Position numbers and translations under genes: made by a program
Notes under the pieces: generated by a model
Database searches by the model: none
Told to the model about the DNA's origin: nothing
Seen by the model: the letters and a program-made list of their open reading frames with translations, nothing else
Assembly: GCA_003647765.1 (NCBI GenBank)
Contig: QMNM01000062.1
Location: 1-7,429 of the forward strand
DNA: 7,429 nt
Source: Candidatus Cloacimonadota bacterium
GTDB lineage: Bacteria > Cloacimonadota > Cloacimonadia > JGIOTU-2 > B8-G9
Direction of reading: 5' to 3'
Shown here: in pieces, positions 4,065-7,069 of the stretch
Position numbering within the stretch: position 1 is the stretch's first letter
Layout of the letters: every line of letters starts with the position of its first letter

Positions 4065-4091
4065 TTAGCACTCATTTCCCAAGAGTGCTAA
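4065..4091. promoter_or_regulatory. CIRCE operator (HrcA binding site)
   Basis: A perfect CIRCE: TTAGCACTC at 4065-4073, nine bases, then GAGTGCTAA at 4083-4091. Both 9-bp arms match the consensus without a mismatch. It lies 28 bp upstream of the chosen hrcA start and just downstream of the predicted promoter, so it would sit at or after the transcription start, as in other HrcA-controlled operons. Because it is palindromic and lies between divergent genes, it could also affect the plus-strand pair, although no plus-strand promoter overlaps it. Confidence 0.97.
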
Positions 4092-6779: not shown

Positions 6780-6918
6780 ATTTGTGTCAAGGTAAATTAG
6801 CTACAAGGCGTAATGCGTAGTGCATAATGCGTAGCCACAGAGTAGCGCGTAGAGCGTAAATTAGACACAAATGGACACGAAAAAAATTTAACAATATTCG
6901 TGAAAATTCGTGTTAATT
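6780..6918. repeat. Composite repeat zone between lysC and tRNA-His
   Basis: Several repeat types are nested here. A 14-bp tandem unit occurs twice (6808-6821 and 6822-6835, 12 of 14 identical, core TAATGCGTAG). GTAAATTAG is directly repeated at 6792-6800 and 6856-6864 around it. ATTTGTGTC (6780-6788) and GACACAAAT (6864-6872) form an outer inverted pair. A GCCACAGAGTA motif (6834-6844) resembles the repeat near grpE. Then ACACGAA (6875-6881) pairs with TTCGTG (6897-6902) or TTCGTGT (6907-6913). No open frame of note covers it. Confidence 0.7.
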
Positions 6919-6991
6919 GATGGCTTAAAAAGAATAGATTATCTAAAAATTTGACAAATTATTTTTCCATTTTTTCGTTAGTATAAAATGT

Positions 6992-7069
6992 GCAGCCGTA
7001 GCCCAGTTGGTTTAGAGCGCCTGACTGTGGATCAGGAGGTCGTGGGTTCAAATCCCGCCGGCTGTACCA
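6992..7069 (+). tRNA. tRNA-His (anticodon GTG), with encoded CCA
   Basis: A full cloverleaf can be drawn. Acceptor GCAGCCG (6992-6998) pairs with CGGCTGT (7059-7065), then A73 (7066) and encoded CCA (7067-7069). The D arm is GCCC/GAGC (7001-7004, 7015-7018) with a C-A mismatch and a ten-base loop. The anticodon stem CCTGA/TCAGG is perfect, with loop CTGTGGA and anticodon GTG at 7027-7029. The variable loop is AGGTC, and the T arm GTGGG/CCCGC has loop TTCAAAT. Oddly for tRNA-His, the base before position 1 is T, position 73 is A, and pair 1-72 is G-U, so the usual G-1:C73 identity pair is not encoded. A TTGACA lies at 6951-6956, and TATAAA (6982-6987) is too close to the 5' end for a normal -10, so the promoter is unresolved. 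No T-rich terminator follows. Confidence 0.93.

What the first reader, a model, noticed from the sequence alone, without database searches (positions are those of the whole stretch)
6992..7069. tRNA-His gene lacking both G-1 and C73
The anticodon is clearly GTG, but the base before position 1 is T, the discriminator is A73, and pair 1-72 is G-U. Nearly all bacterial tRNA-His genes encode an extra G-1 opposite C73, the main signal for histidyl-tRNA synthetase. Exceptions with A73 and no G-1 are known in some Alphaproteobacteria, which have a divergent synthetase. A second occurrence in what seems to be an unrelated lineage would point to recoded histidine identity or to post-transcriptional G-1 addition by a Thg1-like protein.
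Basis: partly seen in the sequence, partly recalled or inferred. Interest (0 to 1): 0.6.

Follow-up and report, generated by a model that had tools for sequence, protein, structure and literature searches.

The report
Horizontally swapped histidine tRNA and synthetase
This bacterium's only detected histidine tRNA lacks the usual "histidine tag" because its lineage appears to have replaced both the tRNA and its charging enzyme with a foreign matched pair known from some Alphaproteobacteria, and the same kind of pair turns up in several other unrelated bacterial phyla.

Summary
Window 6992-7069 is a well-formed tRNA-His(GUG) with U-1, a G1:U72 pair and A73. It is the only tRNA-His detected in this 89%-complete MAG. 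All 20 tRNA-His genes read from its order and class relatives are canonical (G-1, C73). No Thg1 was found in the genome or in 29 relatives.

The explanation lies on another contig. The only HisRS (500 aa) is not the phylum's enzyme; 123 other phylum genomes lack it. It belongs, with strong support, to the G-1-independent HisRS clade known from Alphaproteobacteria. The canonical motif-2 Gln (PQKG) is replaced by Lys. The tRNA is up to 92% identical to tRNA-His from genomes with the same HisRS type, but 60-73% to its own relatives' tRNA-His. DnaK on the tRNA contig and a permease beside hisS look vertically inherited, so contamination is unlikely.

Best reading: a horizontally acquired orthogonal HisRS/tRNA-His pair. 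The same pair occurs in Planctomycetota, Coatesbacteria, Zixibacteria and other bins; tRNA-His lies within about 150 nt of hisS in 10 genomes. [quoted passage not shown] Donor and direction are unresolved; charging is untested.

The parts
6992..7069 (+). tRNA-His(GUG), CCA encoded; A73-type, without encoded G-1
   Evidence: ARAGORN, Rfam RF00005
6991..6991 (+). U at position -1, where canonical tRNA-His encodes G-1
   Evidence: sequence; relatives have G-1
6992..6998 (+). 5' acceptor strand GCAGCCG; G1 pairs with U72 (7065)
   Evidence: sequence, Rfam alignment
7027..7029 (+). anticodon GTG (within TGTGGATC, which starts at 7026)
7059..7065 (+). 3' acceptor strand CGGCTGT, with U72 at 7065
   Evidence: sequence
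7066..7066 (+). discriminator A73, where canonical is C73
   Evidence: sequence; compared with 20 relatives

Best explanation
The tRNA-His is one half of a horizontally acquired, orthogonal HisRS/tRNA-His pair of the kind known from Alphaproteobacteria. In this lineage the ancestral pair (G-1:C73 tRNA-His plus HisRS with motif-2 PQKG) was replaced by a foreign HisRS that does not need G-1 and a foreign tRNA-His that it reads through A73, the G1:U72 pair and the GUG anticodon. RNase P would simply cut at +1 as in other tRNAs, and no G is added later. Shown: tRNA features, HisRS type, phylogeny, absence of Thg1 and of a detected canonical pair, native contig context. Inferred: that this HisRS charges this tRNA, the mature 5' end, and that both genes came together.
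For: Only tRNA-His and only HisRS found in the genome are both of the non-canonical type. HisRS: 44-54% identity to alphaproteobacterial-type HisRS of Alphaproteobacteria, Planctomycetota and Coatesbacteria against about 23-25% to order/class relatives' full-length HisRS; clade with them at 100/100 support; grouping with its relatives' HisRS rejected (p-AU 1e-6), placement outside the A73-type clade rejected (p-AU 4e-4). Motif 2: canonical Gln of PQKG replaced (KPKPG; alphas PGPG). tRNA: 92% identical to planctomycete A73 tRNA-His, 60-73% to own relatives'. Covariation: 28 tRNA-His genes (this one included) from genomes with the A73-type HisRS carry A73 and one U73, none C73; all canonical ones carry C73. 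Native context: DnaK on the tRNA contig 71-78% to order relatives, at most 70% elsewhere; permease beside hisS 45-49% to order, 37-41% to class, at most 33% outside for full-length or near full-length matches. Identity elements A73, U72 and GUG established for alphaproteobacterial HisRS (PMC9976931, PMC7590224).
Against: Own motif 2 is unusual even for the type: Lys where alphas have Gly, and Ser (AGC) in place of a near-invariant Arg (GRF/GRY in nearly all other sequences). The two genes are on different contigs, so co-transfer is not shown here. MAG is incomplete (88.8%, 360 contigs); a canonical copy could hide in gaps. No aminoacylation data.
Confidence: 0.88

Rival explanations
1. Post-transcriptional G-1 addition: the tRNA is processed to +1 and a Thg1/TLP enzyme adds G-1, restoring canonical identity.
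For: Encoded G-1 is absent; such enzymes do this in eukaryotes.
Against: No PF04446 match in this genome or 29 relatives, control positive in Methanosarcina. A73 would still not match a C73-reading HisRS, and the HisRS present is of the G-1-independent type.
Confidence: 0.02
2. Bin contamination: the hisS contig and/or the tRNA contig come from another organism (for instance a planctomycete or alphaproteobacterium).
For: MAG of 360 contigs; only 1 of 124 phylum genomes carries this HisRS; hisS contig is only 3.7 kb.
Against: DnaK on the tRNA contig is 71-78% identical to same-order genomes; the permease 25 nt upstream of hisS on C248 is 45-49% to the order, about 30% to A73-type donors. Both contigs independently look native, and no canonical pair was found.
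Confidence: 0.05
3. Only HisRS was acquired and the resident tRNA-His then mutated to fit it (A73, U72, loss of G-1).
For: The two genes are unlinked here (C88 and C248).
Against: Whole tRNA body matches A73-type genes (up to 92%, with identical acceptor stem in planctomycetes G321 and G215), not relatives' tRNA-His (60-73%). The order's tRNA-Pro(GGG)-tRNA-His tandem is not seen here: no tRNA-His in the 132 nt after tRNA-Pro before the contig ends.
Confidence: 0.1
4. Second, accessory tRNA-His or pseudogene, with a canonical one missing from the assembly.
For: MAG 88.8% complete; several other tRNAs are also missing from the recovered set.
Against: A canonical HisRS is also missing, and an A73-type HisRS is present; two coincident losses are needed. 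The tRNA folds well (66.5 bits).
Confidence: 0.04

Closest known systems
Alphaproteobacterial (RRCH clade / Caulobacter) HisRS-tRNA-His orthogonal pair
   Same: No encoded G-1, A73, G1:U72, GUG anticodon; divergent roughly 500-aa HisRS of one clade; canonical motif-2 Gln lost; no Thg1 found here (PMC3937112, PMC7590224)
   Different: Found in a lineage of another phylum. Motif 2 has Lys instead of Gly and Ser instead of Arg. Branches beside, not clearly inside, the alphaproteobacterial group
Planctomycetota A73-type HisRS/tRNA-His pairs (seen here)
   Same: 49-54% HisRS identity, mostly PGPG/PGLG motif, tRNA-His up to 92% identical with the same acceptor stem
   Different: There tRNA-His in several genomes lies directly upstream of hisS; here the two are on different contigs
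Canonical bacterial HisRS/tRNA-His (as in this organism's order and class)
   Same: GUG anticodon, class II HisRS family TIGR00442
   Different: G-1:C73 and motif-2 PQKG; HisRS only about 24% identical
Protist tRNA-His without G-1 (Trypanosoma, Acanthamoeba)
   Same: G-1-independent HisRS (PMC9976931)
   Different: Eukaryotic enzymes; separate lineage; not compared in detail here

Membership tests
Alphaproteobacterial-type G-1-independent HisRS/tRNA-His pair | tRNA-His without encoded G-1 | tested here: met
   T at 6991
Alphaproteobacterial-type G-1-independent HisRS/tRNA-His pair | A73 and U72 (G1:U72) as acceptor identity elements | tested here: met
   A7066, G6992:T7065; elements reported in PMC9976931 and PMC7590224
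Alphaproteobacterial-type G-1-independent HisRS/tRNA-His pair | U20a in the D loop (recalled from Yuan et al. 2011, paper not read) | tested here: met
   D loop AGTTGGTTTA has U20, U20a, U20b; the requirement itself is recalled, not read
Alphaproteobacterial-type G-1-independent HisRS/tRNA-His pair | HisRS in the same clade as alphaproteobacterial A73-type enzymes | tested here: met
   100/100 clade; exclusion from A73-type clade p-AU 4e-4
Alphaproteobacterial-type G-1-independent HisRS/tRNA-His pair | Motif-2 loop Gly in place of the canonical Gln | tested here: not met
   Gln is lost but replaced by Lys (KPKPGSFREF); other A73-type HisRS also vary there (Gly, Asp, Asn, Glu), so Gly does not define the wider clade, only the alphaproteobacterial form
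Alphaproteobacterial-type G-1-independent HisRS/tRNA-His pair | HisRS charges A73 tRNA-His lacking G-1 | not testable with these tools
   needs aminoacylation assay
Alphaproteobacteria as an organism group | Host belongs to the RRCH alphaproteobacteria | tested here: not met
   DnaK and permease are closest to the window's own order, in a phylum whose other searched members lack this HisRS
Thg1-dependent tRNA-His | Thg1/TLP gene in the genome | tested here: not met
   PF04446: 0 of 30 genomes
Canonical bacterial tRNA-His | encoded G-1 opposite C73 | tested here: not met

The most novel reading that the evidence does not exclude
The G-1-independent hisS and its tRNA-His form a linked, mobile, self-sufficient pair (tRNA-His within about 20-150 nt upstream of hisS in 10 genomes of three phyla) that has repeatedly displaced the canonical pair across bacterial phyla. 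The alphaproteobacterial identity change would be one such import, possibly from Planctomycetota-like donors, and not a unique invention.
Probability: 0.45. Interest if true: 0.7.

Novelty: new member of a known kind. Interest (0 to 1): 0.58.

Why it matters
A change of tRNA identity rules is thought to be very rare because both partners must change at once. [quoted passage not shown] Here one lineage, in a phylum where no other searched genome has this enzyme, carries the switched pair in native context, and the same pair with consistent tRNA-enzyme covariation is found in Planctomycetota, Coatesbacteria, Zixibacteria and others. That makes the origin of the trait, and whether tRNA and enzyme move together, directly testable. 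It also adds natural orthogonal HisRS/tRNA-His pairs of interest for genetic code engineering.

Tried and rejected
Thg1 search: nothing. Contamination: tested with DnaK and the hisS neighbour, judged unlikely. Hidden canonical tRNA-His after tRNA-Pro(GGG), the order's tandem site: none before the contig end 132 nt downstream (one relative has a spacing of 141 nt, so this is not conclusive). Promoter scan upstream of the tRNA: no convincing sigma-70 site on the + strand. Donor direction: AU tests do not reject own plus alphas as one clade (p 0.34), planctomycete enzymes as one clade (p 0.19), or own outside the 25 closest (p 0.21), so donor and order of events are left open. Wang 2007 and Ardell 2006 are not in the library; Yuan 2011 was not looked up; statements from these rest on papers that cite them or on recall. 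Literature searches for A73-type tRNA-His outside Alphaproteobacteria found nothing, which is weak evidence of novelty because most subscription papers are not held.

Full report
OBSERVATION. The tRNA at 6992-7069(+) is real and well formed. Position -1 is U (6991), pair 1:72 is G:U (6992:7065), the discriminator is A (7066), CCA is encoded and the anticodon is GUG. It is the only tRNA-His among 35 tRNA matches in the genome, of which the 30 best were read in full; pattern searches for the tRNA-His anticodon/T-arm found no other. The genome is a MAG of 1.97 Mb in 360 contigs, 88.8% complete, 1.4% contaminated.

RELATIVES. Among 29 relatives of the same order and class, tRNA-His was read from 20 loci; all have G-1 and C73. 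None of the 30 genomes has Thg1.

THE SYNTHETASE. The genome has one HisRS, L053:1480-2982 on contig C248 (500 aa; TIGR00442 381.7 bits, where full-length canonical hits of order/class relatives score 477-526). Other TIGR00442 hits in the genome are partial and weak. A search of 124 genomes of the phylum with this protein at E at most 1e-30 finds it only here. It is 44-54% identical to the nearest A73-type HisRS of Alphaproteobacteria, Planctomycetota and Coatesbacteria and about 24% to its own relatives' HisRS. In two maximum-likelihood trees it lies in a fully supported clade with them (100/100). Forcing it with its relatives' enzymes is rejected (p-AU 1e-6), and so is placing it outside the A73-type clade (p-AU 4e-4). 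Its place within the clade is not resolved.

MOTIF 2. The loop that reads the 1:72/73 end is PQKGRYRQF in canonical HisRS and PGPGRFRQF in the alphas; here it is KPKPGSFREF. The Gln that covaries with C73 (PMC3937112) is gone, as expected, but replaced by Lys and not Gly, and a near-invariant Arg is Ser (codon AGC). Related A73-type enzymes carry Gly, Asp, Asn or Glu, or a two-residue insert (NPYEKRG, Phycisphaerae). One planctomycete outside the clade (L262) has PGKG with a C73 tRNA, so Gly alone is not diagnostic.

NATIVE CONTEXT. DnaK on the tRNA contig is 71-78% identical to order members, 66-70% to class members and 68% or less elsewhere. The FtsX-like permease 25 nt upstream of hisS is 45-49% to the order, 37-41% to the class (best match per genome, one class genome lower) and at most 33% outside for full-length or near full-length matches. 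Both contigs therefore most likely belong to this organism.

THE tRNA ITSELF LOOKS FOREIGN. It is 92% identical to tRNA-His of planctomycetes G321 and G215 (same acceptor stem GCAGCCG/CGGCTGU), 77-87% to alphaproteobacterial ones, 79-83% to Coatesbacteria ones, but 60-73% to its own class's tRNA-His. The order's tRNA-Pro(GGG)-tRNA-His tandem, present in all four relatives examined, is not seen: the tRNA-Pro(GGG) here is followed by 132 nt without tRNA-His and then the contig end.

COVARIATION ACROSS PHYLA. The state of base 73 follows HisRS type without exception in what was read: 28 tRNA-His genes from genomes with A73-type HisRS (this one included) have A73 and one (Zixibacteria, L118) has U73; none has G-1:C73. 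Eight control genomes with other HisRS and all 20 relatives have C73. Phycisphaerae members mostly have A73 with G1:C72, the others G1:U72. All four Coatesbacteria-group genomes searched carry the enzyme. In Planctomycetota, about a dozen of 392 sampled genomes match over the full length including the C-terminal part and have the alpha-type motif.

LINKAGE. In L091, L092, L093, L099, L102, L234, L235, L238, L242 and L244 the tRNA-His lies about 20-150 nt upstream of hisS on the same strand. No tRNA of any kind lies in the flanks of the fetched canonical hisS loci. This is what co-transfer would need. In the window's genome the two genes are on different contigs, so co-transfer is inferred.

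HOW IT WORKS. Shown: the tRNA has the A73, U72 and GUG elements that experiments on Caulobacter and other alphaproteobacteria identify for this enzyme type (PMC9976931, PMC7590224). Inferred: RNase P cleaves at +1 in the ordinary way, no G is added, and the HisRS charges the G1:U72/A73 end; the canonical pair was lost after the import.

KNOWN AND NEW. The pair itself is a known kind. A published view is that it likely arose once in bacteria and marks a clade of Alphaproteobacteria, with a eukaryote-derived HisRS imported there (PMC3937112). The presence of the same pair in a lineage of another phylum, and in several more phyla, was not found in the held literature. The direction of transfer and the donor remain open.

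LIMITS. MAG data only, no charging assay, phylum not named by the tools. From memory, a single-contig 2.2 Mb genome in the same class (G018) would fit Cloacimonadota; this was not tested.

Noticed in passing
window 4065-4091: Perfect CIRCE element (TTAGCACTC-N9-GAGTGCTAA) at the start of hrcA, heading an hrcA-grpE-dnaK cluster on the minus strand.
   Followed up: no
window 6800-6870: Short imperfect repeats (taatgcgtagtgcataatgcgtag) between the aspartokinase gene and the tRNA-His.
   Followed up: no
L030 1498-1586 (G000:C162): tRNA-Leu with anticodon AAG (A34), unusual for bacteria; would need A-to-I editing to read more than CUU.
   Followed up: no
L053 motif 2 (residues in VEKPKPGSFREF): HisRS carries Ser (AGC) in place of a near-invariant Arg, and Lys where alphas have Gly; possible new discriminator-reading solution or a base error.
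   Followed up: partly
L118 1468-1544 (Zixibacteria): tRNA-His with U73 and G1:U72 in a genome with A73-type HisRS; a further discriminator variant.
   Followed up: partly
L094, L100, L101, L102, L103 (Phycisphaerae): HisRS with two-residue motif-2 insert (NPYEKRG, like the eukaryotic DNPAMTRG). tRNA-His with A73 but G1:C72 and no G-1 was read for L101, L102, L103 and, as L122, for the genome of L100; it was not resolved for L094.
   Followed up: partly
L251 / G462 (Planctomycetota): HisRS with two-residue motif-2 insert but C73 tRNA-His with C1:G72 and G-1; shows the insert alone does not mark A73.
   Followed up: no
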